35,333 nt of DNA. Origin: an uncultured Ectothiorhodospiraceae bacterium. GTDB taxonomy: Bacteria > Pseudomonadota > Gammaproteobacteria > S012-40. This document shows, in pieces, positions 7,546 through 24,955 of this stretch (position 1 is its first letter; each line of letters begins with the position of its first letter). The position numbers were made by a program, and so were the translations under genes. The notes beneath the pieces were generated by a model. That model was not told where the DNA came from and searched no databases. It was given only the letters and a program-made list of their open reading frames with translations. Location of the stretch: positions 1-35,333 of the forward strand of contig CALZHW010000019.1 in NCBI GenBank assembly GCA_945787125.1. Direction: 5' to 3'.

Positions 7546-9093
7546 GTGTTTACAGACGCGCGTAGTCTTCCGAATCATTCGGTTGTTGAGGCCGATTTAG
7601 CCATCATCGGTGCTGGTCCCGCAGGTATCACTCTTGCGCGGGCGTTGGCGGCAAGTGGTATGAAAATCTGTTTGATTGAATCGGGAGGATTAGAGTTAGA
7701 TCCCGATGTACAAGCACTTTACGAAGGTGAAAGCATCGGCATTGATTATCCATTGTCCCGCTCGCGTTTGAGATTCTTTGGTGGTAGCTCTAATCATTGG
7801 GGTGGTTACACCCGTCCGCTGGATGAAATTGATTTTGAGGCACGTGAATGGATTCCCTACAGCGGATGGCCTTTTGGACGCAATGAACTCGATGCCTATT
7901 ATCCACCAGCAAATGAGATCTTGCAGGTCGCGCCAGGTCGTTATGAGCAGTTTGATTACTGGGCTGAAAAAACCGGTGAAGACATGCTTGAATTGGCCAC
8001 CGGGCGCCTTAGGACGGAATTTGTGCATTACAGCCCGCCAACCCGCTTTGGGCAGCGTTACAGAGATGAGTTGAAGCGTGCGCCGAATGTTCAGGTATTA
8101 TTAAATGCCAACGTGACAAACATTGCAGTCGGTAGCAATGGTCAAGTGGTTAACGCGTTGGCCATTCGGACGCTAACAGGTCTTAGTCATACAGTTAAGG
8201 CGCAACGTTATGTGGTTGCAGCCGGGGCATTGGAAAATGCGCGTTTGTTGCTGTTATCTAATGATGTTATGCCGACAGGTGTGGGTAATCAAAACGATTT
8301 GGTAGGCCGGTTTTTTATGGAGCACCCTCACTTGTCGGGTTTTTGTGAAATTGTGTCCGCTGAACCTGAGCGCTTGCCGAAAATATATCGACAGCGTGTC
8401 AGGGTAGATGGGCGTTCCGCAAAGGTATCGTTTAAGCCGTCGGAATCTTTTCTCCGTCAGCGTCGTTTGCTTAACGCAACGTTTCAATTTGGGGTAGCAG
8501 GAGAATACAAGGCGTCTGAAGGAAATCCTATTGGTGATGCCAGTCGCGCCACAGCGCATGTGGATATGTTGCGCGCTGCTCGACGATTTCTTGCTGATGG
8601 GCAAGAGCTGCTTGATCCGCAGGATGCCAGTTATGCGGGTGTTTGGCTTGGGGTGGGTTGTGCCTGCGAGCAAGTGCCGAACCCTGATAGTCGTGTCAGC
8701 TTGTCGAATGAACGCGATGCACTGGGTTTAGAAAAAATTCGGCTTGATTGGCGTCTAACTGAGCAGGACCGGCGCAGTGTGGTTGAACATATGCACTCAC
8801 TGGCACTGGAGTTTGGTGCGCTCGGCATTGGTAGGACAGTCATGAATGTGGCAGATGACGGTCGCTGGCCGTCTCAAGTGCAAGGCGGAAACCACCATAT
8901 GGGAACGACGCGTATGAGTGATGATCCCAAGACAGGCGTGGTCGATGGCAACGCTAAAGTTCACGGTATTGACAACCTTTATGTGGCAGGCAGCTCGGTT
9001 TTCCCCACATCAGGTACGGCAAACCCAACGCTCACGCTTGTGGCGCTGGCGTTGCGCCTTACTGATCACTTGCAACGGAAGAAAACGATTTGA
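7546..9093 (+). CDS. GMC-type FAD-dependent oxidoreductase (sorbitol dehydrogenase-like large subunit)
   Basis: 515 residues. An N-terminal Rossmann FAD site (IIGAGPAGITLARAL, ~residues 20-35) is followed by GGSSNHWGGYTRPL, the GMC family's FAD-contacting segment. The C-terminal active-site region reads GGNHHMGTTRMS followed by NLYVAGSSVFPTSGTANPTLT. Members oxidise an alcohol group of sugars, polyols or cholines. The next gene encodes the FAD-sorbitol dehydrogenase small subunit, which places this enzyme in the periplasmic two- or three-subunit sugar/polyol dehydrogenase group; the substrate is not readable. Translation probably starts at GTG 7546, as an upstream in-frame stop excludes earlier codons. 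The SD is weak. No cytochrome c subunit gene is adjacent. Confidence 0.88.
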   Translation: MFTDARSLPNHSVVEADLAIIGAGPAGITLARALAASGMKICLIESGGLELDPDVQALYEGESIGIDYPLSRSRLRFFGGSSNHWGGYTRPLDEIDFEAREWIPYSGWPFGRNELDAYYPPANEILQVAPGRYEQFDYWAEKTGEDMLELATGRLRTEFVHYSPPTRFGQRYRDELKRAPNVQVLLNANVTNIAVGSNGQVVNALAIRTLTGLSHTVKAQRYVVAAGALENARLLLLSNDVMPTGVGNQNDLVGRFFMEHPHLSGFCEIVSAEPERLPKIYRQRVRVDGRSAKVSFKPSESFLRQRRLLNATFQFGVAGEYKASEGNPIGDASRATAHVDMLRAARRFLADGQELLDPQDASYAGVWLGVGCACEQVPNPDSRVSLSNERDALGLEKIRLDWRLTEQDRRSVVEHMHSLALEFGALGIGRTVMNVADDGRWPSQVQGGNHHMGTTRMSDDPKTGVVDGNAKVHGIDNLYVAGSSVFPTSGTANPTLTLVALALRLTDHLQRKKTI

Positions 9094-9095
9094 AC

Positions 9096-9509
9096 ATGGA
9101 TTTCAATTATTATTCCCAACGCAGGCTGTTTATCAAGGCATTGGCGATGACTGTTATTACTGGCATTTCCGGTTGCCAAGTGCTAACAAATGTGCCAGTA
9201 AAAAAGGCTGCAACATCTGATGAATGGTTGGCTAAAGCAATTGGCGATGCACAAGCCGCAGGTCGCATTGGGCAGGCCTATCTGAAAGTTTATCCTGAAG
9301 AGCGACGGCGTGATTGGCTTATCGAAACCATTGATAAGGCTATTCAACCCTATGTTGATGGCAATCGGCCAGCCAATGCTGAACGCGTATTTTTGGCCCT
9401 TAAGCAGGCAGTTCAGCAGGAATATGTGCGTGGCGAAGTAAGTTTGGTTGAAGGCTGGGTGCTGAGTCGCACCGAGGTTCGACTTTATGCGTTTTTGGTC
9501 GTTAAGTAA
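9096..9509 (+). CDS. FAD-dependent dehydrogenase small subunit, Tat-type lipoprotein signal
   Basis: 137 residues. The N-terminus has a twin-arginine-like motif (SQRRLFIKALA) and a lipobox-like GISGC, so export by Tat and lipid anchoring are plausible. The mature part ends in VEGWVLSRTEVRLYAFL, which I recognise from the membrane-bound FAD D-sorbitol dehydrogenase small-subunit family. In that family it is needed for export and maturation of the catalytic subunit, which itself lacks a signal peptide. The large subunit stops 2 bases upstream, so they are one operon. A TTG at 9090 is an alternative start, overlapping the previous gene. Confidence 0.82.
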   Translation: MDFNYYSQRRLFIKALAMTVITGISGCQVLTNVPVKKAATSDEWLAKAIGDAQAAGRIGQAYLKVYPEERRRDWLIETIDKAIQPYVDGNRPANAERVFLALKQAVQQEYVRGEVSLVEGWVLSRTEVRLYAFLVVK

Positions 9510-9718: not shown

Positions 9719-12340
9719 ATGACACGGATCAGTTTTCTCATCGCAGTGGCCATTGCCGCCATTACCATAGGTGCATGGGCAATGTTCAACCAACCCCAGG
9801 TCGAACCGCCTTGGCCCGAACGCGTCCAGGGTTTTTCATTTTCCCCAATGCGGGCTGAGCATGACCCGATAGAGAAAAAGCTACCCACCTTAAATCAGAT
9901 CGAAGCAGATTTAGTCTTGCTGCAGGGTAAAGCCCATGCAGTGCGCACTTATATCGTTGAAGGTGCCATGGGGGAGGTTCCTCGATTGGCTGCCAAGGTT
10001 GGCCTCAATGTGGCATTGGGGGCATGGCTGACAGATGATACTGAACGCAATAATGAAGAAGTCGAGCGGTTAGTTAATATTACGAGAAATCATACGAATG
10101 TTGTTCGGGTTATTGTGGGAAATGAAGTGCTGTTACGTGAAGACATGGGTTCCGTTGAGCTCATGGCTTATCTTGATCGCGTACGCCAACAAGTATGGGC
10201 GCCGGTCAGTACGGCAGAGCCTTGGCACGTTTGGGCAAATAATCCTGAGCTGGTTGAACATGTTGATTATCTTGCGGTGCATATGTTGCCATACTGGGAA
10301 GGTATCGATTTCAAAAACGCGGTAGGTCATATTGTCAACCGGATGGAATACTTGAGCATATTGTATCCCGACAAACCGATTGTGATCGCTGAGGTAGGTT
10401 GGCCAAGTAATGGCCGTGCACGCAGTGATGCCGGAGCATCGGTTGCCAACCAAGCTAAATTTTTACGCCGTTTTCTCGAGGAAGCTGAACGAAGAAACTA
10501 TGTCTATTACGTCATGGAGGCTTTTGATCAACCTTGGAAAAGACGAATAGAAGGTACTGTAGGTGCTTATTGGGGTGTCTACGATGTGGAGCGACGGGCA
10601 AAATTCGAATTCACTGCACCAGTGGTAGCGATTAAACATTGGCATGTTCTAGCGGCGATGTCAGTGGTAGTTGCCCTTATTACTTTTACCATGCTGCTTA
10701 TCGATAGTCGCACCTTGCGAAGTCGTGGCCGGAGTTTTCTCGGAATTATCGCTTATGCAGCTGCGACACTCGCGGTTTGGGCAGTCTATGATTACACTAA
10801 TCAATACCTGACCACAGCTAGCATGGTGATCGGTGTTTTACTCATGCTTGGCATGATTGGCGTATTACTTATTATCTTTGCCGAAGCGCATGAGTGGGCC
10901 GAAGCATTATGGGTGAAGGAAAAACGGCGTCCGTTTTGTCTATTGCCGTTACCTGATGCTGAGTTGCCCATGGTATCAATCCATGTGCCAGCCTACAACG
11001 AGCCGCCTGACATGATGATTGAGACGCTGGCTGCTTTAGCGCGGTTAGAGTATCCCAACTATGAAGTCATCGTAATCGATAATAATACGAAGGATCCTTC
11101 TGTCTGGAAACCCGTACAAAATTATTGTGCACAACTCGGGTCGCGTTTTCGATTTTTTCATGTTGATCCACTGGCGGGATTCAAGGCAGGCGCACTCAAT
11201 TTTGCACTTAAAAAAACCTCACCGAAAGCCAAGGTTATAGCGGTTATCGATAGCGACTACGTTGTTGATCCCCATTGGTTGCGGGATCTCGCTCCGCAGT
11301 TCAGTATGCCTAATGTTGGCATTGTGCAGGCGCCTCAAGATTACCGCGATGGCAAGCAGAGTGTTTTTAAATCGATGTGTTATGACGAATATCGAGGCTT
11401 CTTTTCTATCGGCATGATCACCCGCAATGAGCGAAATGCGATTATTCAACATGGCACTATGACCATGGTGAGCCGCGAAGTATTGGATAAGCTAGGTGGT
11501 TGGGGTGAGTGGTGTATTACTGAAGATGCTGAATTAGGTCTACGGGTTTTTAAAGAGGGTTACGACGCCGTTTATATTGACAAAAGTTATGGTCGAGGTT
11601 TGATGCCTGACACCTTCATCGATTTTAAAAAACAGCGGATTCGTTGGGCTTACGGCGCGACACAAATCATGCGTCGACATTTATTGGATTTATCAGGCTT
11701 CGGTAAAAATAAATTAACGCGTGGTCAGCGTTACCATTTTGTTGCTGGATGGTTACCCTGGGTTGCTGATGGTTTCAATTTTATTTTCACGTTAGGTGCC
11801 TTGGCTTGGTCTATCGGTATGATCATTGATCCCAGGAATATCAACCCTCCACCGATTTTATTCGCCATCTTGCCGATGCTATTGTTTGTCTTTAAATTTG
11901 CCAAAATACTGTATTTATATCGATCGAGTCTCAAAGCGAGCATAGGGCAGACTCTGTCTGCTGCGATTGCCGGGTTGGCCTTGTCTCATGCTATTTCATT
12001 GGCGATGTTAAATGGCTTGTTCACGAAGTCTAAACCATTTTTTAGGACACCCAAAAAAGCCAAAAGTCATGCCTTGGCCAGAGCGTTTATGGCATCATCT
12101 CAGGAGGTAGTACTCATGCTGGCACTATGGACAGTGGCTATTGCTGTATCGTTACGACCTGATGCTGACTCATTTGATATGCTGTTGTGGATCGGGTTTT
12201 TAGCCATTCAATCGTTGCCATATTTGGCCACGTTCGTGGTCGCCCTGATCAGTGCGTTGCCTGAGCGTCGAGTGACCACCAAGGAGGTAGTGGCAACGGG
12301 CCAAGAGAACGCTAACGATGCTAAAATTGAAAAGCTATGA
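9719..12340 (+). CDS. ndvB: NdvB-like GH17-GT2 beta-1,3-glucan synthase
   Basis: 873 residues. After an N-terminal membrane segment, residues ~30-300 form a GH17-like (beta-1,3-glucanase fold) domain with VGNEVLL and IAEVGWPSNGRA, matching the acid/base and nucleophile glutamate regions. Two membrane spans follow (~305-390), then a family 2 glycosyltransferase (~420-660) with IDSDYVVD (D,D), TEDAELGL and QRIRWAYGA (QxxRW), and a C-terminal block of membrane spans. This order and length match Pseudomonas NdvB, which makes cyclic beta-1,3-glucans linked to biofilm drug tolerance. Function here is inferred from that architecture. The symbol is given by analogy only. Nothing in the context confirms it, and no export partner is next to it. 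Confidence 0.82.
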   Translation: MTRISFLIAVAIAAITIGAWAMFNQPQVEPPWPERVQGFSFSPMRAEHDPIEKKLPTLNQIEADLVLLQGKAHAVRTYIVEGAMGEVPRLAAKVGLNVALGAWLTDDTERNNEEVERLVNITRNHTNVVRVIVGNEVLLREDMGSVELMAYLDRVRQQVWAPVSTAEPWHVWANNPELVEHVDYLAVHMLPYWEGIDFKNAVGHIVNRMEYLSILYPDKPIVIAEVGWPSNGRARSDAGASVANQAKFLRRFLEEAERRNYVYYVMEAFDQPWKRRIEGTVGAYWGVYDVERRAKFEFTAPVVAIKHWHVLAAMSVVVALITFTMLLIDSRTLRSRGRSFLGIIAYAAATLAVWAVYDYTNQYLTTASMVIGVLLMLGMIGVLLIIFAEAHEWAEALWVKEKRRPFCLLPLPDAELPMVSIHVPAYNEPPDMMIETLAALARLEYPNYEVIVIDNNTKDPSVWKPVQNYCAQLGSRFRFFHVDPLAGFKAGALNFALKKTSPKAKVIAVIDSDYVVDPHWLRDLAPQFSMPNVGIVQAPQDYRDGKQSVFKSMCYDEYRGFFSIGMITRNERNAIIQHGTMTMVSREVLDKLGGWGEWCITEDAELGLRVFKEGYDAVYIDKSYGRGLMPDTFIDFKKQRIRWAYGATQIMRRHLLDLSGFGKNKLTRGQRYHFVAGWLPWVADGFNFIFTLGALAWSIGMIIDPRNINPPPILFAILPMLLFVFKFAKILYLYRSSLKASIGQTLSAAIAGLALSHAISLAMLNGLFTKSKPFFRTPKKAKSHALARAFMASSQEVVLMLALWTVAIAVSLRPDADSFDMLLWIGFLAIQSLPYLATFVVALISALPERRVTTKEVVATGQENANDAKIEKL

Positions 12341-12348
12341 TACAAGAT

Positions 12349-12536
12349 CTCAAGTTTCGGAGTTCAACTATTCCCCATAATCAGCGCGCGCAGTGGCAAC
12401 TCTTATTGAGAGTGTTGGCAGCATGGAAGCTGCCGCCAAGCCTACAGGGAGGTATTCACGGCGTCTCTCGATAAGGGTTGCCGCTGCGGGCGCTAGAAGG
12501 TGGCAGTTTTACAACTATTGAACTCCGAAACTTGAG
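12349..12536 (-). repeat. Palindromic MITE-like repeat, copy 2 (inverted)
   Basis: 188 bp, in reverse orientation relative to copies 1, 3 and 4. Its ends are CTCAAGTTTCGGAGTTCAA and TTGAACTCCGAAACTTGAG, a perfect 19 bp terminal inverted repeat that differs from copy 1 in the outer part. The core (CAGCATGGAAGCTG, GGTATTCACGGCGTCTCTCG) matches the other copies. It starts 8 bases after the ndvB stop, and the helicase operon starts 47 bases after it ends. As RNA it could act as a bidirectional stem-loop terminator for ndvB. Confidence 0.88.
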
Positions 12537-12583
12537 TAAGATAATCAACCCCATGCCGCATCAACCCCGTGCCAGGAGATTTG

Positions 12584-14323
12584 ATGAACGTAAAAACCCA
12601 ACTTGATGCTTTAAGAGATTTTGTTCAAACAGAGCAAGAAGCGAATTTAAATCAGCTATTAAATATTTGGGAAAAGCCACTTGCGGGGAAATTAGCCTCT
12701 GGCGAAACACAAACCTTTAGCCACCTGGAATTAATCAGTAAAGACACATTAATCGCAACTTTGACTGCGGAGGAGTCACGCTTTCGAGAGGGGGATATGC
12801 TGTGCCTGCATACCGGTGATCCCTGTGAAAATACATTTGTGCGCCAGGTGACCATTGATGAAGAAGACAATAGAAAATGGATCTTAAGTGGTAAAGACTT
12901 GCAGCAACAGATACAAAGTTACCGCGGTGGAGTCTGTTATGCTGATGCAGATAGTATGGATTTAACGCCTTTTTTCGATAAAGCATTGACAGAAATAGCG
13001 GCATCAAGTATTGGCAAAGAAATAATTTTACCACTGCTTGCAGGCCAACTTGATGTTGGTTTTTGCTACATGGATAACTACGATAGTGCGGCGGATTTAG
13101 CCGAGTCGATGGGTTTCAATGAAGGCCAACAGGAGGCGGTGGGCTATGGGGTGGCAGCGCGCTATGTGGCCTGTATACAAGGGCCACCTGGCACAGGTAA
13201 AACGAAAGTCATTGGTTTAATTGCAAAAATTTTGGTGGATGAAGGTCAGAATGTTTTACTGACCTCACATACACACATGGCGATAAATAATGCACTGAAT
13301 AAAATTCACCATGAAAATGTCCCCGTTGTTAAAGTGGGTGCGACTACCTCACGTAAAGCACTGAATCCGAACATTAAACTTTTTGCTCAAGGCAATGATT
13401 GGCATGACCGACCTGAGCAAGGATATGTGATTGGCGCAACACCTTTTGCAACCTGCACCAAACGTTTGGAAAATTTTGAGTTCGATACCGTTATTTTTGA
13501 CGAAGCCAGTCAAATAACAGTGCCGCTCGCGGTGATGGCCATGCGCAAAGCCAGGCGCTTTGTTTTTGTGGGCGATCACCAGCAACTACCCCCAGTCGTT
13601 TTATCAAAATCCATTCTGGACAAAGAATCTTACTCAGTATTTGCCCAGCTGATAGAGAAAAATAATAAAACGTCCGTGATGTTAGGTGAGACCTATCGCA
13701 TGAATCAATGGCTAACAACATGGCCCAGTGATAATTCCTATCATTCAAAATTATCATCGGTTGGGTCAAATCAACAACGAACATTTGATTTACCTATTAA
13801 ACCTACGTCATTCAAAACGATATTATCCAATGAACATTCACTGGTTTACATACCCAGCCCAGGGGTAGCGTGTAAAACACTCAATATTGCTGAAGCAGAA
13901 TTGATCAGCAACATAGTAAAAATTGTACTTGAATGTAAGATGGAATCGAGTGATATTGGTATAGTCACGCCATTTCGTAATCAGGCTCGTAGACTTAAAA
14001 CACTACTCGCAAAAAAATTGAGCAAACATAACATGCAACAAATCGTAATCGATACGGTTGAACGCATGCAGGGGCAGGAACGCGAATTGATCATCCTTTC
14101 TCTTTGCGCAACGGATCTTTTGTTTATTAGAAATATAGCGCCGTTTTTCTTTCAGCCGCAACGATTAAATGTTGCAATAACCCGGCCTATGACTAAACTC
14201 ATTATCATCGGGCCTGATATAGAAAACGATTTTATAGATGATGACGAACAGATAATGTGCTGGATTAAGCGTTATCTCAGCCTGATTAATCAAGCCTATC
14301 GCCCCAATATTGGAGACCTGTAA
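12584..14323 (+). CDS. SF1B (UPF1/DNA2-like) helicase, AAA_11/AAA_12
   Basis: 579 residues. An N-terminal ~190-residue non-helicase part is followed by the SF1 motifs in order: Walker A GPPGTGKTKVIG (~residue 200), motif II FDEASQ (~305), motif III VGDHQQLPPV (~330), TYRMN, IGIVTPFRNQARRL, MQGQERELIILSL and LNVAITRP. It is therefore an active-looking ATP-dependent nucleic-acid helicase of the UPF1/DNA2 group. The ATG at 12584 has AGGAG 5 bases upstream; a GTG 15 bases earlier is less likely. The second helicase gene starts 3 bases after the stop, so they form one operon. I do not recognise a named system. DNA repair or anti-phage defence are possibilities, neither shown by the sequence. Confidence 0.88.
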   Translation: MNVKTQLDALRDFVQTEQEANLNQLLNIWEKPLAGKLASGETQTFSHLELISKDTLIATLTAEESRFREGDMLCLHTGDPCENTFVRQVTIDEEDNRKWILSGKDLQQQIQSYRGGVCYADADSMDLTPFFDKALTEIAASSIGKEIILPLLAGQLDVGFCYMDNYDSAADLAESMGFNEGQQEAVGYGVAARYVACIQGPPGTGKTKVIGLIAKILVDEGQNVLLTSHTHMAINNALNKIHHENVPVVKVGATTSRKALNPNIKLFAQGNDWHDRPEQGYVIGATPFATCTKRLENFEFDTVIFDEASQITVPLAVMAMRKARRFVFVGDHQQLPPVVLSKSILDKESYSVFAQLIEKNNKTSVMLGETYRMNQWLTTWPSDNSYHSKLSSVGSNQQRTFDLPIKPTSFKTILSNEHSLVYIPSPGVACKTLNIAEAELISNIVKIVLECKMESSDIGIVTPFRNQARRLKTLLAKKLSKHNMQQIVIDTVERMQGQERELIILSLCATDLLFIRNIAPFFFQPQRLNVAITRPMTKLIIIGPDIENDFIDDDEQIMCWIKRYLSLINQAYRPNIGDL

Positions 14324-14326
14324 GCT

Positions 14327-16321
14327 ATGGCTCAATTAATGAATTCATTAGTCAATCTGGATAACAAGGTACGAAGGCATTTTAAGCGAGCATTGGAAGC
14401 ATTAGATGAGCAGTTTATTGTTCGTTCACCGATATTAGACAACGATAAAGTTGCGCAAATTGTTATTGAAGGGGCTAATAATACGTGGTTGTTTGTGGGA
14501 TATCACCTTGCTGCGCCGACTAAGGTGGAATTACAGGCTTTTGTTGATTTTGTTATAGAGTCTCATAATGGTGAGTGGCGACAACTAAACTATCTGGCAA
14601 TCATCGAAAAACCTGCAGACTTAAACGATCATCCTCATCAATTAATTCAAGGCGTGCATCATGTTGATAAAGCCGATTTTCTGAATGATACTCAAACAAT
14701 TGTTGATAAGCACTTGGTGCAACTTTCACACGTATCACATCAGCAGCTTAAAATACGACTTTTTTCCGAATCCAGTATCCATGCTGCATGCACGACAAGA
14801 CAAAGCTTGCAACGTGATAACAGTGCACAACTACAGCACGTCTTTTTAGATTATGATCAGGAGTGGGCCGCTAAACTTGATATTATAGACGATGAACGTA
14901 ACCTGGATACGAAGCAAGATTTCACACTGAGATTGATAAATGGTGTCGCCGGCAGTGGCAAAACCTTGATTCTTATTAATCGTGCTTTGTTGTATTGTAG
15001 AAAATATCCAACGAAAAAAATCTTGTTTCTTATACACAATAAACCGATTACCACCGATATTAAATTAAGATTAGATCGCTATCTCGGTGGCAAACCTGAT
15101 AATCTTAATTTGCAAACATTTCATGCATTTGCCAGAGCACAAAAGCTGAAAGCATCAAATGCAAAAACTAAAATAAACATTATTTTTTCTAGTGATTCAC
15201 CTCCTGTTCAATTGCAAGACTTGTTCTCTGAGAAAAGTGAAACTATTCAACAAACGAAATTGTCTGCAACGCAGCTGTGGAGTGAGATTGAATATATCAA
15301 CGCGCACTTAATTGCGAATGAAAACGATTATTTAACAGTAGAGCGCCATGGACGAGGTTTTGCTTTGCAGCAAAATCAGCGAAAACTCATCTGGCAACTA
15401 TACACACTTATTATGCAGCGATTGTGTTCTTATGATAAAGGCTATTTGGCCAGTTTATATATCCGGGAAATGTGTTTGAATCATGACACGGAAAATTCTT
15501 TAGATAAATATCATCACATTCTTTTGGATGAGGCGCAGTTTTTTCTACCCTCCTGGTTAGAACTTGTTAAAAAGTCTATTTTGCCCAACGGTCAGCTATT
15601 CATGTGCGCTGATCCAAATCAAGGCTTTTTAAAAAGCCGACTAAGTTGGAAAAGTATCGGTTTAAACGTGCGAGGTAGAACTAAAATACTCACCTATTCT
15701 TATCGAACAACATATTCCATTTTGAAAGCGGCTAACGCGTTGCTTGATGTGTTTAAAGAAGACCCAGAAGAATTTTTAAAGCCAGAATTTGATAAAATGG
15801 AAATTGGCAGTCAACCTCAAGTTATATTTAGCGCAACACCGCAAGACGAATTATCTCGCTTTCTGAATGAGCTGGACAGTTGCGTACATCAAATGGGAGT
15901 CCCATTAAATCAAATTCTCATCTTATGTGGTGAAACCTATAAACCTTGGGATCTTAAAAAGCAGATTGAAAACCGAATTAAAAATGTTAATGTCTTGAAT
16001 TATAATGATTCAAACGCTTTCGCTAAGCCAGACAGCATTAAACTGATGACGATAAATAGCTGCACTGGAATGGAAGCTGGAGTGGTTTTTATATTGGGCA
16101 TCGGTGAGCTGTTATCAAAAAGTAATACTCTGGATATGAGCGAAGAGGAAAAGCAGATCGCCAAGCAAGAGACCTATAGGAAACTTTATGTTGCTATGAC
16201 ACGTGCCGGGCAGAAATTATTTATGTTTAGTACGGATGATGTGCCTGAAGAGATAATTCCGTTTGTAGAATGCAAAAATTCCCAACTCCAGCAATCCAAC
16301 ATGACTGAAGAAATATTATAG
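14327..16321 (+). CDS. UvrD/Rep-like SF1A helicase with long N-terminal domain
   Basis: 664 residues. The first ~200 residues match no domain I can name; they contain WLFVGYHL and YLAIIEKPADL, which resemble an alpha/beta domain. Walker A is GVAGSGKTLILINRA (~residue 205). LQTFHAFAR (motif Ic-like), LLDEAQFFLP (motif II), MCADPNQGFLK (motif III), YSYRTTYSILKAAN (motif IV), MTINSCTGMEAGVVFILG (motif V) and LYVAMTRA (motif VI) follow. It is a complete UvrD-type core, shorter than UvrD itself (~720 aa). It lies 3 bases after the first helicase gene. A physical or functional pairing of an SF1B and an SF1A helicase is inferred from the operon. Copy 3 of the palindromic repeat follows 35 bases after the stop. 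Confidence 0.85.
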   Translation: MAQLMNSLVNLDNKVRRHFKRALEALDEQFIVRSPILDNDKVAQIVIEGANNTWLFVGYHLAAPTKVELQAFVDFVIESHNGEWRQLNYLAIIEKPADLNDHPHQLIQGVHHVDKADFLNDTQTIVDKHLVQLSHVSHQQLKIRLFSESSIHAACTTRQSLQRDNSAQLQHVFLDYDQEWAAKLDIIDDERNLDTKQDFTLRLINGVAGSGKTLILINRALLYCRKYPTKKILFLIHNKPITTDIKLRLDRYLGGKPDNLNLQTFHAFARAQKLKASNAKTKINIIFSSDSPPVQLQDLFSEKSETIQQTKLSATQLWSEIEYINAHLIANENDYLTVERHGRGFALQQNQRKLIWQLYTLIMQRLCSYDKGYLASLYIREMCLNHDTENSLDKYHHILLDEAQFFLPSWLELVKKSILPNGQLFMCADPNQGFLKSRLSWKSIGLNVRGRTKILTYSYRTTYSILKAANALLDVFKEDPEEFLKPEFDKMEIGSQPQVIFSATPQDELSRFLNELDSCVHQMGVPLNQILILCGETYKPWDLKKQIENRIKNVNVLNYNDSNAFAKPDSIKLMTINSCTGMEAGVVFILGIGELLSKSNTLDMSEEEKQIAKQETYRKLYVAMTRAGQKLFMFSTDDVPEEIIPFVECKNSQLQQSNMTEEIL

Positions 16322-16356
16322 GTCACTCGATTCGGTAGGTTGGTGATTGCTTTAAG

Positions 16357-16553
16357 CTCACAATCAGAGTTCAATAATTGCAGAAGTACATAAGTGCCAC
16401 CTTCCTAGCGCCCGTAGCGGCAGACTTTACCGAGAGACGCCGTGAATACGTCCTTGTAGGCTTGACGGCAGCATCCATGCTGCCAACACTCTCGCTAAAG
16501 TCTGCCGCTACGGACGCTGATTATGGAGAAAAAAATAGAATTACGATTGTGAG
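16357..16553 (+). repeat. Palindromic MITE-like repeat, copy 3
   Basis: 197 bp with ends CTCACAATCAGAGTTCAA and a diverged TAGAATTACGATTGTGAG. The inner arms are CGTAGCGGCAGACTTTA with TAAAGTCTGCCGCTACG, and the central hairpin is GGCAGCATCCATGCTGCC. Flanking TTTAAG and TTTAAA may be a target duplication. An open frame reads through it into the TonB receptor gene, but this is fortuitous: the receptor's signal peptide begins after the element. Confidence 0.9.
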
Positions 16554-16560
16554 TTTAAAT

Positions 16561-18654
16561 ATGCTTGTTGTAGACAACATTAGAATGATTCAGCGGATTC
16601 GAAACGCTACTTTCTGTGTCCGCGTGTGGTGGTATTTACTGTTGATCCTGGGTTCTCCTGCGGCAGTGATGGCTCAAGCTCCCGCGAGTCAGGAACCTCT
16701 GCAAATTATCATTAATTCAGGTCGCCTTGAAAAACCGTTGGAAGAAATGCCCGCAGCGGCGACCGTGTTAGAGCATGAAGCCATTCATGGTGGGCGCCAG
16801 CAATTGGGTTTGGACCAAGCGCTGGCCAATGTGCCAGGCATCTTTGCCCTCAATCGTTACAACTTTGCCCAGGATCTGCGCCTTTCGATTCGCGGCTTTG
16901 GTGCCCGCGCTAATTTTGGTATCCGTGGTGTGCGTATCTTGATCGACGGCATGCCAGCCACAACACCTGATGGTCAATCGAGTATTGATGATATTGATCT
17001 TGGCAACTTAGCACGAGTGGAAATTATTCGTGGCCCCGCAGGTGCGCTTTATGGCTCTTCTGCGGGCGGAGTATTAAGTCTCGAAACCGAAAAAGGCAAA
17101 GGTCCGCCTTCTCTTGAAGCCGGGTTCAGTGCCGGCGCCTATGGTTTCCGCGATGTTAAATTTAAGGGCAGTGGTGCGCGGAATTATCTGAGTTATTCAT
17201 TAAATGCTTCACGCCTCAGTATTGATGGTTACAGAGCGCAATCGGTTGCACAAAGGGACGTGTTGAATGGCCGGTTTGACTACAGCCTAGCTGGTGGCGG
17301 TGAATTCACTGCAGTTCTCGCCTTGCTTGACGCACCTTTGGCGCAAGATGCTGGCGGACTCACTGCTGAGCAAGTCAGTATGGATCGAAGCCAGGCTGCT
17401 CCTCTCAATGTGCGTTTTGATACCAGCGAAACAATCCGCCAGCAGCGTTTTGGTTTGCATAGCCGTCATCCTTTAGACAGTAACGCTGAACTGCGCCTGC
17501 GCGGTTATTATGTGCAGCGCGATTTTGCTAATCGCCTGCCGTTTAATAAAATTGAACTTGATCGTCGCTTCGGCGGCAGCAGTGTTGAATACGTGAGTGA
17601 TAATCAATGGTTGGGTACTCCGGGTCGTCTATTGTTGGGGTTGGACATTGATTATCAAGATGACATGCGACGTCGTCTTGACAATCTCGATGGTGTGACG
17701 GGCGATTTAAATTTTGAGCAGCGTGAGCGCGTACTGAGCAGCGGAATTTTTATCGCCCGCGAGCACAATTTCTCAGCGCGAATCCGTTTGGACATGGGTT
17801 TGCGATATGATTACCTGCGCATCGAAGCCAACGATCGTTTTCTCAGTGATGGTGATGACTCAGCGAGTGTGATATTTACTCGCTGGAGTCCGAGTATCGC
17901 GCTGCTCATGCAACAAAATAATAATACCCGTTATTACGCCCGCATCGCGACCGGATTTGAAACCCCAACCACTACTGAGCTCTCCCGTCCAGATGGCAGC
18001 GGGGGATTCAATAAAACCCTGATGCCCGAGAGCACTCTAAGTTACGAACTGGGCGTTCGCAAAAAGTTGACTCAGTTCGTGCACGGTGAAATCGCCTTGT
18101 TCGAGAGCCAAATAGAAGATCAGCTGGTGCCTTTTGGAATTGCTAACTCACCAGACCGTTTCGCCTATGAAAACGCCGGGCGTTCACGTAATCGCGGTCT
18201 GGAATCAGCCCTGTCAATCGGCGAATACACAGGCTGGAGCATACAACTTGCATACACTTATTCGCATTTTCTCTTTATCAATTTTACTGATCAAAATGGG
18301 CAGAAACTGGATGGCAAACGATTGCCTGGTGTACCCGAAAATTTGTTTAATCTGGAGCTGCGTTATCGCACCAATTTTGGTGTATTTGTCGCGCTGGAGA
18401 CCCGCTACACCGGTCGTTATTATGCTGACAATAATAACAATATAAAAATAACACCGAGCATGGTCAGCGGTCTGCGTATAGCTTATCAGCAGACCATCAG
18501 TCACTGGCAGTTACACGTTCGGGCGGGAATAAACAATCTTTCTAATGAAAATTATTACGCAAATATTCGCCTCAACGCGACCGCCGAGCGTTATTATGAA
18601 CCCGCACCCCCTCGCCATGTTTACATCGGCTTTAGCGCGCGATATTTTTTTTAA
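16561..18654 (+). CDS. TonB-dependent outer-membrane receptor
   Basis: ~697 residues. A signal peptide ends near VMAQA. The plug domain (~residues 40-165) has SIRGFGARANFGIRGVRILIDG and VEIIRGPAGALYGSSAGGV, the hallmark of TonB receptors. The rest is a beta-barrel ending in an aromatic residue (SARYFF) as expected for BAM-dependent insertion. Such receptors import ferric siderophores, cobalamin, metals or glycans. The ligand cannot be read, and no transport genes lie beside it. Start: the frame is open back into the repeat, but ATG 16561 or 16585 gives a normal signal peptide. 16585 gives the shorter, more typical n-region. Neither has a clear SD. The 5' leader lies inside or next to the palindromic repeat, which may affect expression. 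Confidence 0.9.
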   Translation: MLVVDNIRMIQRIRNATFCVRVWWYLLLILGSPAAVMAQAPASQEPLQIIINSGRLEKPLEEMPAAATVLEHEAIHGGRQQLGLDQALANVPGIFALNRYNFAQDLRLSIRGFGARANFGIRGVRILIDGMPATTPDGQSSIDDIDLGNLARVEIIRGPAGALYGSSAGGVLSLETEKGKGPPSLEAGFSAGAYGFRDVKFKGSGARNYLSYSLNASRLSIDGYRAQSVAQRDVLNGRFDYSLAGGGEFTAVLALLDAPLAQDAGGLTAEQVSMDRSQAAPLNVRFDTSETIRQQRFGLHSRHPLDSNAELRLRGYYVQRDFANRLPFNKIELDRRFGGSSVEYVSDNQWLGTPGRLLLGLDIDYQDDMRRRLDNLDGVTGDLNFEQRERVLSSGIFIAREHNFSARIRLDMGLRYDYLRIEANDRFLSDGDDSASVIFTRWSPSIALLMQQNNNTRYYARIATGFETPTTTELSRPDGSGGFNKTLMPESTLSYELGVRKKLTQFVHGEIALFESQIEDQLVPFGIANSPDRFAYENAGRSRNRGLESALSIGEYTGWSIQLAYTYSHFLFINFTDQNGQKLDGKRLPGVPENLFNLELRYRTNFGVFVALETRYTGRYYADNNNNIKITPSMVSGLRIAYQQTISHWQLHVRAGINNLSNENYYANIRLNATAERYYEPAPPRHVYIGFSARYFF

Positions 18655-18732
18655 TTATTTTGAATATTGGTCGATAAATATCACCAACCTTTACAATTAT
18701 CATTTTCTGACTATTTTCTGCTAATATGATAA

Positions 18733-18921
18733 CTTACAATCGGAGTTTAAAGTTGCTAAAGTGCTACCTTCCGGCACCCGTAGTGGCAAGGCCTTACCGA
18801 GAGACGCCGTGAATACATCCTTGTAGGCTTGACGGCAGCATCCATGCTGCCAACACTCTCTATAAGGTCTTGCCACTACGAGTGCTGATTTCGGGAATAA
18901 TAATTGAACTCCGATTATGAG
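18733..18921 (+). repeat. Palindromic MITE-like repeat, copy 4
   Basis: 189 bp with ends CTTACAATCGGAGTTTAA and TTGAACTCCGATTATGAG. Inner arms GTAGTGGCAAGGCCTTA and TAAGGTCTTGCCACTAC flank the central hairpin GGCAGCATCCATGCTGCC. It is closest to copy 1. It sits between the TonB receptor stop and the large envelope gene, where it could end or attenuate transcription. The flanking bases give no convincing target duplication. Confidence 0.9.
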
Positions 18922-19076
18922 TGGTAAGAATCGAAAACGAATTTTGCGACATAACCTGAGGTCAGGCACCCCAATAAAAGACAATGGATGTGAAAATAAA
19001 TGACTCTCGACAACAATGTTATTAGTTCGCTGTTATGGCTCAGAAAAAATTCCAATTCATTAATCGGGAGTGCAGC

Positions 19077-22000
19077 ATGATGCAATGGTTTTCGATGTTT
19101 ATTTTGTTGTTTTTCGTTTCCTCGGCTCACGCCGCGCAGGAAGTCGCTATCCCTGATGAATTGAAGAACTGGGTTCCATGGGTGTTGCAAGGCAAAGAAG
19201 AAACTAACTGTCCTTTTCAGTACAATCATGCAGAGAGCCGTCACTGCGCCTGGCCTGAAATGCTCTCACTGGAGGTGAATAATCAGGGTGGAAAATTCAA
19301 ACAAAGTTGGGATGTCTATGAACAAAGTTGGATCGCACTACCCGGCAATAGAAAAAACTGGCCGCAGGATATAACCGTTGATGGAAAACCTACTGTGGTG
19401 GTTGAGAAAAAGGGCATGCCTTTTGTTCAGTTGGCAAAAGGCAATTACCAGATAGCAGGTCGTTTTATCTGGAATAAATTGCCTGAATTTATTAATTTAC
19501 CTGCAAGAACAGGTTTGCTCGATGTCGTCATTAATGAAAAAAATCTTGAATTTCCACAGCTTGAAGCCAGTGGCCGCTTATGGTTAAACAAAACCACACC
19601 AGAATCTTCAACAGCCATTGAAAATAAGTTACAACTGGATGTGTTTCGCCGAGTTATTGATGATGTGCCATTGCGAATCATTACTCGGCTGGATATGAAT
19701 GTTGTTGGTCAGCCGCGTGAAATTGTGCTTGGGCCTTTGCTGTCTGAAAACGATGTTCCGCTATCCATTTCCGGGCAGTTGCCTATGCGGCTCGAAGTTG
19801 ATGGTAAACTGCGTATGCAGGTGCGACCGGGTCACTGGGTTGTGCACGTTGAAGCGCGACATAAAACACCCGTGGATAGTTTGTCATTGACCCCCTCTAA
19901 TTTACCGGACAATGAAGTCTGGGTATTTGATGCGAAACCGTCATTACGACTGGTAGAAATCGAAGGTGTTGTTTCGCTTGACCCTCGGCAAACGCGTCTT
20001 CCTAAAGAATGGCATAATCTGCCTGTCTATCAAATGTCTAAGTCAGATACATTGCAGATTGTCACCAAACGCCGTGGCGATCCTGATCCTGTTGCCAATG
20101 AACTTACCCTCAATCGCAATCTTTGGCTTGATTTTGATGGGAGTGCTTATACTTTTCAAGACACGCTTACCGGTCAAATGCGTCAAGGCTGGCGCCTGAA
20201 TATGTCACCGGACATGATACTTGGTCGTACGGTAGTTAATGGTGTTGATCAACTTGTAACACGCTTGCAAGATGGGGCAGAGCAGGGCATAGAAGTTCGA
20301 CAAGGTGAAATATCCGTGCAAGCAGAAGGCCGTTATCAAGGTGATATTTCTGCGGTGCCGGCTATTGGCTGGTTAGATAATTTCACGCGTGCCCAGGCGA
20401 CATTACATCTGCCGCCGGGTTGGCAATTGTTTGCGGCATCTGGGGTGGATTCTGTCAGTGGCGCTAGTTGGATTGATCGCTGGAGTTTGCTGGATATTTT
20501 TTTAGTGTTGATTGCTGCATTAGCCGTTTATCGATTGCTCGGTTGGTTTTGGGGTGCAGTTGCCCTGGTTTGTTTCGTTTTTTCGTGGCATGAAAGCGGG
20601 GCGCCACAATATATATGGCTCTTCGTTATTGCTGCCATCGCCTTGCTGCGCGTCGCACCGGAAGGGCGATTGAGAAAAAGTATGGTGGTGCTGCGTTACC
20701 TGAGTCTGACGGGACTGGTGGTCATTGCGATTCCTTATATGGTTGATACGGTGCGTACCGCGATTTATCCACAGCTAGAGCGGCCTGATATGTTAGTTTC
20801 CCCAATGAGCCCGGTTATGCAGCAAGATTCGTCTTTGTCGCGCAAGTCGGATGAAATGTTGGAGCAAGAAATCAGCCAAAGCATGAGTATACCTCGTGTT
20901 GAGAAGCGAAGTAAGATAAGTTCGTCCATTTCACTTTATAGCGATGCAATTGATCCACGCGCCAAAGTACAAACCGGCCCTGGTTTACCGCAGTGGTCAT
21001 GGCAATCAATTCCGATTCGTTGGAACGGGCCCGTGCAAGCCGGGCAGGTGCTTGGGTTAACATTGATGCCACCAGCCTTAACCGCGAGCATTAAATTAGT
21101 CAGTGTATTTCTAGTGCTACTGTTAGGTTTAGGTTTGGCCGGTATTACATTGAAAGGTAAACGAGTGACAGTCGAAGTCGTCAAACTTGGCATAATAGGT
21201 TTATTCATAGGCTCTTCGCTATTATTTATGCCGAATCAAGCTTCGGCAGATATTCCGTCAGCGGAACTCTTAATGGAATTACAAGATCGACTATTGGCAC
21301 CACCTGAATGTTTACCGCAATGCGCACAGATATCGCGAATGAAACTCGAGATAAAATCTGATCTGCTGCGAATATTATTGGAAGTTCATACCAGTGAAGA
21401 TGTTGCCGTGCCTATACCCAGTGAATTAAAGGGTTGGATGCCTAATCTCGTCACCCTGGATGGTGAAAAAACACCGACTATGCGTGGGGCACAGAATGCG
21501 CTGTGGTTGCAGGTGCCAAAAGGTATTCACAATATCCAGATTGCCGGCCCCATAAGGCAAGTACGAATGCTACAGCTTCCTCTACCGCTGCAACCTAGCC
21601 GTATTGAAATAAACGCAACGGGTTGGAATGTAAAAGGTGTGCATCAGGATGGCACTATTGAAAAGGCGTTACAGCTTGAGCGCGAAGTTGTCGAAGGCGA
21701 GAAAGCCAAAGTATTGGAGCAAACAGTGTTACCATCGTTTGTGACCGTGACTCGCATCCTGCGCCTGGGTCTCGAATGGCAGATCGAAACAGTCGTTAAA
21801 CGGCTAACGCCATTGGGTAGCGCAATTGCGTTGGAGATTCCATTGATCGCCAATGAGTCGGTTACTACCGATGGTATTCGTATAGCACACGGTAAAGCGG
21901 TTATTCAATTCGCTCCGCAACAACAGAGTGTGCGTTGGCAATCTGTTTTGCAACAATCGACGTCTATTTCGCTGCAAGCAGCAAATAGCCTCGACTGGAT

Positions 22001-23195
22001 CGAGCAGTGGCGGCTGGATGTTAGTCCGATTTGGCATGTCGAACTGGATGGCATTCCACAGATTCATCACCAAAGCAAGCAGGGCACATGGTTTCCACAG
22101 TGGCACCCCTGGCCGGGCGAGCAGCTTAGTATTCAGGTATCGAAACCCAGTGGTGTAGCAGGCAAGACGAAAACTATTGATCGCACCCAACTCACGGTCA
22201 AACCTGGCCAGCGTGCAACCGATGTATCGTTGGCCTTACGGCTGCGCAGTAGTCAGGCTGACCAACATATTATTCAGTTACCAGAAGGTGCGACCTTGGG
22301 TGCCGTCCTGGTCAATGGCAAATCACAACCTATTCGTCAGGAAGACGCAGGCGTTGTGCGCCTGCCGATTGCGCCCGGTGAGCAGAATATAACATTGAAC
22401 TGGCAGACCGCAACCGGCATTGGCAGTTTATTGGAGACACCCAGCGTGAATACTGGACTTGATAGTGTTAACGCTAACATCGAAATTCAACTACCACAAA
22501 ACCGTTGGACGCTGTTAACTTTTGGCCCTCAATTAGGGCCTGCTGTACTTTTCTGGGGTGTATTGATCGTTGTCGTAATCATCGCCATCGGTCTGGGGCG
22601 TACAAAACAAACACCATTAAAAACGCATCAATGGCTATTGCTTGGTATTGGTCTTTCACAAGCCGCTATCGGTGTCGCGATGCTGGTTGTTGGGTGGTTA
22701 TTTGCAATGGCATGGCGTAAACGAGCAGGTTCGACGGTTAAGTCCCGATCTTTTAATATAATGCAAGTTGGTCTGGGGTTTTTAACTATACTGGCTTTAT
22801 TTGGTTTAGTCGGCGCGGTAGGTTTTGGTTTGTTAGGTCATCCAAATATGCAAATTAGTGGCAATGGTTCATCTGCGGCTAACCTGCAATGGTATGCAGA
22901 TCAATCCACTGAAATTCTGCCAACCGCCACCGTGATATCTGCACCTTTGTGGTTATATCGTGTATTGATGCTGGCTTGGAGTCTTTGGCTGGCCTTCGCT
23001 TTATTGGGATGGCTAAAATGGGCCTGGCAATGTTTCATCGCAGATGGTTTGTGGCGACATCTACCCCCAAAATCCGAGCCTATAAAAAGTAAGCCAAGTA
23101 AAAATGAAAATAATGATGCTTGGTTAGGTGGAAAATCAAAAGTGGATGTTAAAGAGAGTAAAAGTGATAAAAGCGAAGGCGATAAGATTGAGTGA
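19077..23195 (+). CDS. Large inner-membrane/periplasmic protein with internal duplication, function unknown
   Basis: 1372 residues from ATG 19077, chosen because GGGAG lies 6 bases upstream and a clean signal peptide (FILLFFVSSAHA) follows; the frame is open for 14 more codons. Layout: periplasmic domain ~20-465; membrane segments ~469-555; a short loop; membrane segments ~672-720 ending in a signal-like FMPNQASA; a second periplasmic domain ~722-1150; about four C-terminal spans ~1155-1320; and a Lys/Ser/Asp-rich cytoplasmic tail. The two periplasmic parts look related: each starts with a cysteine pair region and then has DG...AKGNYQIAGRF or DG...PKGIHNIQIAGPI. I do not recognise the family. 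It may be a fused tandem duplication of a signal-peptide plus membrane-anchor module. No neighbour explains its role. Confidence 0.85.
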   Translation: MMQWFSMFILLFFVSSAHAAQEVAIPDELKNWVPWVLQGKEETNCPFQYNHAESRHCAWPEMLSLEVNNQGGKFKQSWDVYEQSWIALPGNRKNWPQDITVDGKPTVVVEKKGMPFVQLAKGNYQIAGRFIWNKLPEFINLPARTGLLDVVINEKNLEFPQLEASGRLWLNKTTPESSTAIENKLQLDVFRRVIDDVPLRIITRLDMNVVGQPREIVLGPLLSENDVPLSISGQLPMRLEVDGKLRMQVRPGHWVVHVEARHKTPVDSLSLTPSNLPDNEVWVFDAKPSLRLVEIEGVVSLDPRQTRLPKEWHNLPVYQMSKSDTLQIVTKRRGDPDPVANELTLNRNLWLDFDGSAYTFQDTLTGQMRQGWRLNMSPDMILGRTVVNGVDQLVTRLQDGAEQGIEVRQGEISVQAEGRYQGDISAVPAIGWLDNFTRAQATLHLPPGWQLFAASGVDSVSGASWIDRWSLLDIFLVLIAALAVYRLLGWFWGAVALVCFVFSWHESGAPQYIWLFVIAAIALLRVAPEGRLRKSMVVLRYLSLTGLVVIAIPYMVDTVRTAIYPQLERPDMLVSPMSPVMQQDSSLSRKSDEMLEQEISQSMSIPRVEKRSKISSSISLYSDAIDPRAKVQTGPGLPQWSWQSIPIRWNGPVQAGQVLGLTLMPPALTASIKLVSVFLVLLLGLGLAGITLKGKRVTVEVVKLGIIGLFIGSSLLFMPNQASADIPSAELLMELQDRLLAPPECLPQCAQISRMKLEIKSDLLRILLEVHTSEDVAVPIPSELKGWMPNLVTLDGEKTPTMRGAQNALWLQVPKGIHNIQIAGPIRQVRMLQLPLPLQPSRIEINATGWNVKGVHQDGTIEKALQLEREVVEGEKAKVLEQTVLPSFVTVTRILRLGLEWQIETVVKRLTPLGSAIALEIPLIANESVTTDGIRIAHGKAVIQFAPQQQSVRWQSVLQQSTSISLQAANSLDWIEQWRLDVSPIWHVELDGIPQIHHQSKQGTWFPQWHPWPGEQLSIQVSKPSGVAGKTKTIDRTQLTVKPGQRATDVSLALRLRSSQADQHIIQLPEGATLGAVLVNGKSQPIRQEDAGVVRLPIAPGEQNITLNWQTATGIGSLLETPSVNTGLDSVNANIEIQLPQNRWTLLTFGPQLGPAVLFWGVLIVVVIIAIGLGRTKQTPLKTHQWLLLGIGLSQAAIGVAMLVVGWLFAMAWRKRAGSTVKSRSFNIMQVGLGFLTILALFGLVGAVGFGLLGHPNMQISGNGSSAANLQWYADQSTEILPTATVISAPLWLYRVLMLAWSLWLAFALLGWLKWAWQCFIADGLWRHLPPKSEPIKSKPSKNENNDAWLGGKSKVDVKESKSDKSEGDKIE

Positions 23196-23254: not shown

Positions 23255-23443
23255 TCATAAATTTTTAGAAAGAAAAGTGGAAACATATTCCATTCTTTGA
23301 TCCTCAGGCACGGATTTTAATTCTGTGCCTAACTGCACTCCTAATTGAATGCTGCCAATCATCAAAAAACTTAAATAAATGAGATACGCGCTTCCAACTA
23401 CTTTGCCAGTTTTAGTTGTAAAAATAAGCTGTTTCAGTTTCAT
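23255..23443 (-). CDS. Small single-pass membrane protein, hypothetical
   Basis: About 62 residues from ATG 23443 (or 65 from ATG 23452). One hydrophobic stretch (VVGSAYLIYLSFLMIGSIQLGV, split by polar residues) lies in the middle, followed by a charged tail KSVPEDQRMEYVSTF. No clear SD is visible. It is on the opposite strand from the large envelope gene and converges with it. It could be a real small membrane protein or a chance frame; nothing else occupies this stretch. Confidence 0.4.
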   Translation of the reverse strand: MKLKQLIFTTKTGKVVGSAYLIYLSFLMIGSIQLGVQLGTELKSVPEDQRMEYVSTFLSKNL

Positions 23444-23718
23444 CAAATACATAATATAGCCTTTGAAATATAAAAAACTTTACGGTGAGATTTTATTTTG
23501 AATCCGAAAAAAGTGTTTTTTTATTCGTGGTATGAATTATCCGGGTTAAATAGGCACGTTATTAAACTCTTTTTTAGTCGCGTTAATATGTATGATAATT
23601 GCATTAGGTTATATGTGGCTTAATGCTATAAGAAGAAAGGCTTTGCTTAGAAGTGGGGAGAAGCAGGCGCCTCTCCCCGGTTTATAGCTCTACAACATCC
23701 TAGTTGTCGAAAGGGCTA

Positions 23719-24915: not shown

Positions 24916-24955
24916 TTTAGATTCCTTCCTTTTGCAAGTTTAAAGGTTTAATAAC

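What the first reader, a model, noticed from the sequence alone, without database searches (positions are those of the whole stretch)
12584..16321. Two-gene SF1B + SF1A helicase operon between inverted copies of a palindromic repeat
Two different superfamily 1 helicases, 3 bases apart, each with a long uncharacterised N-terminal domain (~190-200 residues), are bracketed by repeat copies 2 (reverse) and 3 (forward). The pair has no housekeeping neighbours. Paired helicase operons of this kind occur among anti-phage and DNA-maintenance systems, but I cannot match this one to a named system. Candidate undescribed module.
Basis: inference. Interest (0 to 1): 0.65.

Follow-up and report, generated by a model that had tools for sequence, protein, structure and literature searches.

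The report
Mobile two-helicase candidate defence module
Two different DNA/RNA-motor genes that always travel together between bacteria, usually among anti-virus genes, look like an undescribed two-part bacterial defence system; its activity has not been tested.

Summary
In detail: HelA (12584-14323, 579 aa) and HelB (14327-16321, 664 aa) lie 3 bases apart with intact SF1 motifs. The flanking repeat is a high-copy MITE-like element (at least 40 copies), so the bracketing means little. HelA's N-terminus is the ordinary 1B barrel and stalk of Upf1/IGHMBP2/Dna2 helicases. HelB's N-terminus weakly resembles a PD-(D/E)XK nuclease fold without catalytic residues.

The main suspicion is supported. All 25 other HelB loci have HelA directly upstream; no third gene is conserved. 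The pair is patchy: 0 of 36 relatives, 14 of 197 Vibrio. It occurs on plasmids and in tRNA-anchored islands. By my count 13 of 17 Vibrio loci carry restriction, Gabija, Septu or Abi genes nearby. Two islands bounded by tRNA-end repeats hold the pair plus restriction or Septu genes. In one island type HelB was swapped while HelA, hsdM and hsdR stayed about 95-97% identical, as was the specificity gene hsdS. No library names the pair as a system.

Best reading: an undescribed, horizontally moving two-helicase anti-phage/anti-MGE module, probably a paired opposite-polarity motor. Activity and mechanism are inferred, not shown.

The parts
12584..14323 (+). HelA: Upf1/IGHMBP2/Dna2-like SF1B helicase, 579 aa
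   Evidence: Pfam AAA_11/AAA_12; TIGR00376 IGHMBP2 family 2e-57, below its cutoff; Foldseek of the full model: Dna2 2e-33, Upf1 2e-31, IGHMBP2 5e-30 with over 600 alignment columns
12584..13108 (+). HelA N-terminal region (about residues 1-175): stalk helices and 1B beta-barrel, not a nuclease
   Evidence: model pLDDT 86.7: helix 3-30, strands 42-122, helices 128-152; whole-chain alignment to Upf1/IGHMBP2
13181..13204 (+). HelA Walker A, GPPGTGKT (residues 200-207), invariant
   Evidence: invariant in 22 sequences
13499..13510 (+). HelA Walker B, DEAS (residues 306-309); D306, E307, S309 and Q310 invariant
14327..16321 (+). HelB: UvrD/Rep-like SF1A helicase, 664 aa
   Evidence: Pfam UvrD-helicase/UvrD_C; PADLOC C3a187 (NERD+UvrD) 8e-32, best stretch in the helicase core
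14327..14776 (+). HelB N-terminal domain (about residues 1-150): alpha-beta-beta-beta-alpha-beta core, weakly PD-(D/E)XK-like, no catalytic residues conserved
   Evidence: model pLDDT 69.9; Foldseek best 3dnx prob 0.90, E 0.019, then EndoMS, VRR_NUC, NucS, SfsA at low probability; only M1, A2, L26, R33, W54, L90 invariant in 24 sequences; no profile match to NERD
14846..14869 (+). HelB conserved LDYDQExA (residues 174-181), at the SF1 Q-motif position
   Evidence: L174, D175, Y176, Q178, E179, A181 invariant in 24 sequences
14942..14965 (+). HelB Walker A, GVAGSGKT (residues 206-213)
   Evidence: G206, G209, G211, K212, T213 invariant
15527..15538 (+). HelB Walker B, DEAQ (residues 401-404)
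   Evidence: D401, E402, Q404 invariant
12349..12536 (-). MITE-like palindromic repeat, copy 2 (bystander)
16356..16555 (+). MITE-like palindromic repeat, copy 3 (bystander)

Best explanation
HelA-HelB is a self-contained, horizontally moving two-gene anti-phage/anti-MGE defence module not described under any name I could find. Shown by sequence: two intact SF1 motors of different subfamilies, strict co-occurrence in fixed order, exchange as a unit between unrelated neighbourhoods, residence on plasmids and in tRNA-anchored islands among restriction, Gabija, Septu and Abi genes, and replacement of HelB inside otherwise conserved islands. Inferred mechanism: the two proteins act together on foreign DNA. 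HelA, as an Upf1-like SF1B enzyme, should move 5'->3'. HelB, as a UvrD-like SF1A enzyme, should move 3'->5'. On the two strands of one duplex they would run the same way from an end or gap, as RecD and RecB do, unwinding or stripping the DNA and so blocking phage replication or exposing ssDNA to host or partner nucleases. Neither protein has a recognisable intact nuclease. HelB, with its nuclease-like but inactive-looking N-terminus and its swap behaviour, is the likelier recognition subunit. Confidence: defence function about 0.78; the opposite-polarity joint motor about 0.35. The confidence field refers to the defence function.
For: HelA directly upstream of HelB in 25 of 25 other loci, with HelA interrupted in L067, frame-broken in L012 and cut by the contig end in L007. 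No other gene shared by all loci. Patchy: of 36 relatives only one has weak, unpaired HelA-type matches; 1 of 369 genomes of the class, its own; 14 of 197 Vibrio. Plasmid-borne in V. parahaemolyticus, V. coralliilyticus and V. nigripulchritudo. Neighbours: Gabija 4e-217/2e-266 and two Septu systems; type I R-M; McrBC; type III MTase with a DrmD-like helicase and type IV REases. V. salilacus island: 57-bp repeat, 98%, 9480 bp apart, starting at the tRNA-Ser 3' end, holding HelAB, an MTase-HNH gene and PtuAB. V. splendidus island: about 105-bp repeat from the tRNA-Val 3' end, score 137 against a random maximum of 33, holding HelAB, hsdMSR and McrBC. Pair on the tRNA 3' side in 11 of 11 tRNA/tmRNA-linked loci. 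Unit transfer: 90.5% over 4090 bp between two plasmids with unrelated flanks. HelB swap: HelA about 97%, HelB 49-72%, hsdM about 95%, hsdS 50-79%, hsdR about 95%. HelA/HelB distances correlate, r 0.88, p 0.0002. Polarity by subfamily: PMC13238157, PMC6138625.
Against: No phage or plasmid assay exists. In the window itself, and in the Zooshikella, Thiopseudomonas, Lampropedia and Gynuella loci, no defence gene was recognised beside the pair among the genes scanned. No effector nuclease was found in either protein. A HelA-HelB complex is not shown. Polarity is assumed from the subfamily. The HelB N-terminal model is of modest confidence and profile comparison gives no support for NERD homology. 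The empty site of the V. salilacus island could not be shown. Defence-gene enrichment was counted, not tested against matched control genes.
Confidence: 0.78

Rival explanations
1. The pair is an accessory to restriction: a RecBCD-like dual motor that takes over DNA ends made by neighbouring restriction enzymes and finishes off the cut DNA, rather than an autonomous defence system.
For: Type I, III or IV restriction genes lie near many Vibrio copies, in one island type only about 70 bp downstream of HelB; opposite polarity is expected from the subfamilies.
Against: The restriction neighbours are of different, unrelated types; several copies have none recognised nearby (window, L005, L011, L013, L014); others sit beside Septu or Gabija instead.
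Confidence: 0.15
2. The pair acts against or for mobile DNA other than phages, for example blocking incoming plasmids or stabilising the islands and plasmids that carry it.
For: Found on three Vibrio plasmids and at island edges.
Against: Also stands alone in chromosomes without an obvious element (L005, L014, window); no partition, relaxase or integrase gene is conserved beside it.
Confidence: 0.15
3. An ordinary accessory DNA-repair or recombination helicase pair.
For: Both proteins belong to families that include repair helicases (UvrD, Rep, Dna2).
Against: Absent from nearly all relatives and 93% of Vibrio genomes; unrelated neighbourhoods; transfer as a unit; swapping of HelB.
Confidence: 0.06
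4. The pair works on RNA or R-loops rather than on DNA ends: HelA belongs with RNA/DNA helicases of the Upf1/IGHMBP2/Senataxin group and might remodel phage transcripts or transcription complexes with HelB.
For: Structure matches to Upf1, IGHMBP2 and Sen1.
Against: Dna2 is an equally good or better match to HelA; HelB is UvrD/Rep-like; the neighbours are DNA-directed systems.
Confidence: 0.1
5. A composite mobile element made by the two flanking inverted repeats.
For: Inverted copies lie within 50 bp of each end of the operon.
Against: The repeat is spread over the genome in at least 40 copies; the boundaries of the pair in other loci are tRNA ends or unrelated sequence.
Confidence: 0.03

Closest known systems
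Gabija (GajA + GajB)
   Same: Two genes; HelB and GajB are both UvrD-like SF1A helicases (GajB profiles match HelB, best 7e-14 over the family); a Gabija system lies next to one copy of the pair.
   Different: No OLD-family nuclease partner: HelA is a second helicase. HelB has an extra N-terminal domain of about 150 aa. HelB is far from the GajB models compared with the true GajB next door (E 1.5e-266).
NERD+UvrD candidate protein (PADLOC C3a187)
   Same: Best PADLOC match of HelB (8e-32); a nuclease-like fold in front of a UvrD-like helicase.
   Different: The best-matching stretch is in the helicase core. HelB's N-terminus has no D...ExK and no profile similarity to NERD. No C3a187 hit in the own genome at E <= 1e-60, whereas true members score 1e-150 or better.
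Mokosh (MkoA/MkoC)
   Same: MkoA carries a helicase domain that matches HelA (2e-47).
   Different: Only the helicase core of a much longer protein (1100-1600 positions) matches; no PLD or NERD domain in HelA; no MkoB was found among the genes scanned.
RecBCD (RecB SF1A + RecD SF1B)
   Same: Works like: an SF1A and an SF1B motor of expected opposite polarity encoded together.
   Different: Not a member: no RecC, no active nuclease domain; HelA is Upf1/Dna2-like and far below the RecD cutoff.
Hachiman (HamAB)
   Same: Two-gene, helicase-centred defence; the helicase acts as DNA-state sensor (PMC12278908).
   Different: Hachiman has an active nuclease effector and a Hel308-like helicase; here there are two SF1 helicases and no visible nuclease.

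Membership tests
Upf1-like SF1B helicase (HelA) | SF1 motifs I, II, III, V, VI of the AAA_11/AAA_12 type | tested here: met
   Pfam above cutoff; motif residues invariant in 22 sequences
Upf1-like SF1B helicase (HelA) | 1B beta-barrel with stalk helices packed on RecA1 | tested here: met
   predicted model and whole-chain Foldseek matches to Upf1, IGHMBP2, Dna2
Upf1-like SF1B helicase (HelA) | 5'->3' translocation | not testable with these tools
   subfamily property only (PMC13238157)
UvrD-like SF1A helicase (HelB) | UvrD N and C domains with intact motifs | tested here: met
   invariant residues in 24 sequences
UvrD-like SF1A helicase (HelB) | equivalog to Rep, UvrD, PcrA, HelD or RecB | tested here: not met
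   all NCBIfam equivalogs far below cutoff
Gabija | GajA OLD-family ATPase-nuclease beside the UvrD-like gene | tested here: not met
   the partner is HelA in every locus; no third conserved gene
NERD+UvrD (C3a187) | N-terminal NERD nuclease domain with D and ExK | tested here: not met
   no NERD profile match; catalytic residues absent
PD-(D/E)XK fold (HelB N-terminus) | alpha-beta-beta-beta-alpha-beta core | tested here: inconclusive
   predicted topology fits; best Foldseek hit prob 0.90 but E 0.019 and TM 0.33-0.43
Mokosh | MkoA with PLD or NERD domain in addition to the helicase | tested here: not met
   HelA is 579 aa and matches the helicase part only
Anti-phage defence system | association with known defence genes and mobile elements, patchy distribution | tested here: met
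Anti-phage defence system | protection against phage or plasmid | not testable with these tools
   needs an infection or transformation assay

The most novel reading that the evidence does not exclude
A nuclease-free immune machine: two SF1 motors of opposite polarity jointly disable foreign DNA, with HelB as an exchangeable specificity subunit that evolves by gene replacement as HsdS does in type I restriction.
Probability: 0.27. Interest if true: 0.85.

Novelty: new variant of a known kind. Interest (0 to 1): 0.64.

Why it matters
Most characterised helicase-containing defence systems pair a helicase with a nuclease or another effector. A conserved module of two different SF1 helicases with no visible effector would show that motors alone, or motors feeding host nucleases, can be immunity. 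The HelB swap inside otherwise conserved islands gives a direct, testable handle on which subunit recognises the invader. The pair also marks small tRNA-anchored defence islands without a recognised integrase.

Tried and rejected
Composite element formed by the repeats: rejected, high copy number. Nuclease at HelA's N-terminus: rejected, 1B barrel and stalk. NERD homology of HelB's N-terminus: profile-profile comparison in both directions gave probability about 0.1 on hhalign's 0-100 scale. A third conserved gene: none. Empty-site test for the V. salilacus island with joined flanks: uninformative, the tRNA-Ser side matches nearly all 61 Vibrio genomes but the right flank matches none. Synteny of the window's own flanks in relatives: the glycosyltransferase and TonB-receptor neighbours are themselves absent at the thresholds used, so no empty site could be read. 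Repeated tRNA ends for the L011 and L013 loci: none within about 20 kb. Viral contigs: no relative; phage records: only two distant helicase matches. Rfam: no hit in the window. E. coli genomes: no near DNA match. Literature: ten searches found no description of this pair; supplements and most subscription papers were not searchable.
Full report
OBSERVATION. The window carries HelA (12584-14323, + strand, 579 aa) and HelB (14327-16321, + strand, 664 aa), three bases apart. HelA matches AAA_11 and AAA_12; HelB matches UvrD-helicase and UvrD_C. All helicase motifs look intact. Palindromic repeat copies lie about 47 bp before HelA (reverse) and 34 bp after HelB (forward). This repeat is about 200 bp with terminal inverted repeats and is present at high copy in the genome: 257 first-look candidates, and the 40 scored all match, 39 of them other copies at 83-88%. 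Four are in this window. The bracketing is therefore no evidence for a unit.

WHAT THE PROTEINS ARE. HelA modelled with eight homologues gives pLDDT 86.7. Foldseek matches it over the whole chain to Dna2, Upf1 and IGHMBP2 (E 2e-33 to 5e-30). Its first 175 residues are a long helix, a beta-barrel and stalk helices: the 1B barrel and stalk of Upf1-like helicases. There is nothing uncharacterised there. HelB is a UvrD/Rep-like core beginning with a conserved LDYDQExA at the Q-motif position, preceded by about 150 residues. That region was modelled at pLDDT 69.9 with an alpha-beta-beta-beta-alpha-beta order. The best solved-structure match is 3dnx (probability 0.90, E 0.019), with EndoMS, VRR_NUC, NucS and SfsA among the weaker ones; nuclease-named proteins (restriction endonuclease, VRR-NUC, Mrr, NERD) also recur among weak viral matches. 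That 3dnx belongs to a PD-(D/E)XK-like repair family is from memory. Profile comparison with NERD domains fails. In 24 HelB sequences only M1, A2, L26, R33, W54 and L90 are invariant in residues 1-160, so no conserved D...(D/E)XK site exists. I call it possibly a degenerate PD-(D/E)XK fold; this is suggestive only.

THE PAIR IS A UNIT. A scan of about 85,000 species genomes with HelB found ten loci; plasmids gave further Vibrio copies and Vibrio genomes more. In all 25 other loci examined HelA lies directly upstream of HelB; in L067 HelA is interrupted by an inserted ORF, in L012 its frame is broken, and in L007 it is cut by the contig end. HelA-HelB distances correlate (r 0.88, Mantel p 0.0002). 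No other gene is shared by all loci, though subsets share a type I R-M system or an MTase-HNH gene. Two Vibrio plasmids share 4090 bp at 90.5% that covers the pair and about 400 bp upstream, while the rest of the fetched stretches has no match.

DISTRIBUTION. Among 36 relatives none has the pair; only one has weak HelA-type matches, in longer unpaired proteins. One of 369 genomes of the class has HelB, namely the window's own. In a phylum sample one further, distant and short HelB-like match turned up, at 25% identity and with no HelA match reported beside it. In Vibrio 14 of 197 genomes have it. There is no relative among viral contigs.

NEIGHBOURHOODS. In Vibrio: Gabija and Septu beside the V. 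coralliilyticus plasmid copy, Septu in V. salilacus, type I R-M in V. splendidus and others, type III MTase with a DrmD-like helicase, type IV restriction enzymes, McrBC, an AbiC-like gene in V. parahaemolyticus. By my count 13 of 17 Vibrio loci have a recognised defence gene within about 10 kb (L006, L009, L015, L016, L057, L058, L059, L060, L061, L063, L064, L066, L068; L057, L059, L063, L064 and L068 by homology to scanned genes). Outside Vibrio only L008 has candidates (SoFic, PDC-S01). The window itself has none among the genes I scanned. This is a count, not a test against matched controls.

ISLANDS. tRNA or tmRNA genes lie near eleven loci, and in all eleven the pair is on the 3' side, where islands integrate. 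These include orthologous tRNA-Ser and tRNA-Val sites, so they are not eleven independent events. In V. salilacus a 57-bp direct repeat (98%) starting at the tRNA-Ser 3' end recurs 9480 bp away; between lie HelA, HelB, an MTase-HNH gene and PtuAB. In V. splendidus a repeat of about 105 bp from the tRNA-Val 3' end recurs about 14 kb away (score 137; random maximum 33); between lie HelAB, hsdM, hsdS, hsdR and McrBC. No integrase was recognised in either. In Thiopseudomonas (GreA/GreB-family gene - pair - tRNA-Leu) and Lampropedia (benE - pair - tRNA-Ser - amino acid kinase, aspartokinase-like) the pair sits beside a tRNA with no recognised defence neighbour.

HELB SWAPPING. Two genomes with the same tRNA-Val island were aligned: HelA is about 97% identical, HelB drops to 49-72% from about 180 bp after its start to its stop, hsdM returns to about 95%, hsdS drops to 50-79%, hsdR is about 95%. 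HelB of the V. splendidus copy is instead close (89% protein identity) to that of V. salilacus, whose HelA is only 67% identical. So HelB was replaced inside a conserved island, just as the specificity subunit next to it was. HelB is thus the better candidate for the recognising part. This is an inference from few events.

MECHANISM. Upf1-like enzymes are SF1B (5'->3') and UvrD-like enzymes SF1A (3'->5') (PMC13238157; PMC6138625). A joint complex would move along both strands of one duplex in the same direction, as RecB and RecD do (established knowledge). Without a nuclease, the likely outcome is disruption of phage replication intermediates or delivery of ssDNA to host or neighbouring nucleases. 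Helicases as DNA-state sensors are known from Hachiman (PMC12278908), and GajB is described as a nucleotide sensor in Gabija (PMC10822852). Shown: genes, motifs, linkage, mobility, context, swapping. Inferred: defence function, complex formation, polarity, target.

KNOWN OR NEW. PADLOC 2.0 and NCBIfam 20 give only domain-level matches. Gabija, Mokosh and C3a187 each fail a tested defining feature. Ten literature searches found no description. DefenseFinder models, preprints outside PMC and supplements could not be searched, so a recent description may exist. I rate it a new variant of a known kind: a helicase-based defence system with a new make-up.

Noticed in passing
window 33870-35276 (-) and 29735-30014: Integron integrase (TIGR02249, 2e-139) in a 468-aa frame, about 150 aa longer at the N-terminal side than the profile; the 5' part of this frame is duplicated (86-89%) about 5.3 kb away. 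A chromosomal integron may lie here.
   Followed up: no
window 28822-29121 and 32989-33288: A 300-nt direct duplication (92%) covering the end of the KDPG aldolase gene (eda); the second copy is a fragment near the integron integrase.
   Followed up: no
window 5036-5237, 12349-12536, 16356-16555, 18724-18923: About 200-bp palindromic MITE-like repeat with terminal inverted repeats, high copy in the genome (at least 40, up to 257 candidates); no mobilising transposase was sought.
   Followed up: partly
window 19035-23195 (+): 1386-aa open frame with no Pfam match at E 0.01.
   Followed up: no
L006 5856-15392; L009 5955 to L041 about 2550: Small tRNA-anchored islands flanked by long direct repeats (57 and about 105 bp), carrying defence genes and no recognised integrase. 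How they move is unexplained.
   Followed up: partly
L006 10633-12339; homologues L062 7184-8890 and L066 11599-13305: Single gene with an N-terminal methyltransferase-like and a C-terminal HNH domain, shared downstream of HelB in three Vibrio loci; the only PADLOC match of the L006 copy is mad2, in the methyltransferase part.
   Followed up: no
L067 6658-9637: HelA interrupted by an ORF (8299-9150) that clusters with IS-like ORFs of other loci, while HelB stays intact: a natural HelA knock-out.
   Followed up: no
L015 about 10055-17490 and L016 about 23280-29280: Arrays of about 125-bp repeats shared by the V. parahaemolyticus and V. coralliilyticus plasmids between small genes, like integron attC cassettes, beginning a few kb downstream of the pair.
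   Followed up: no
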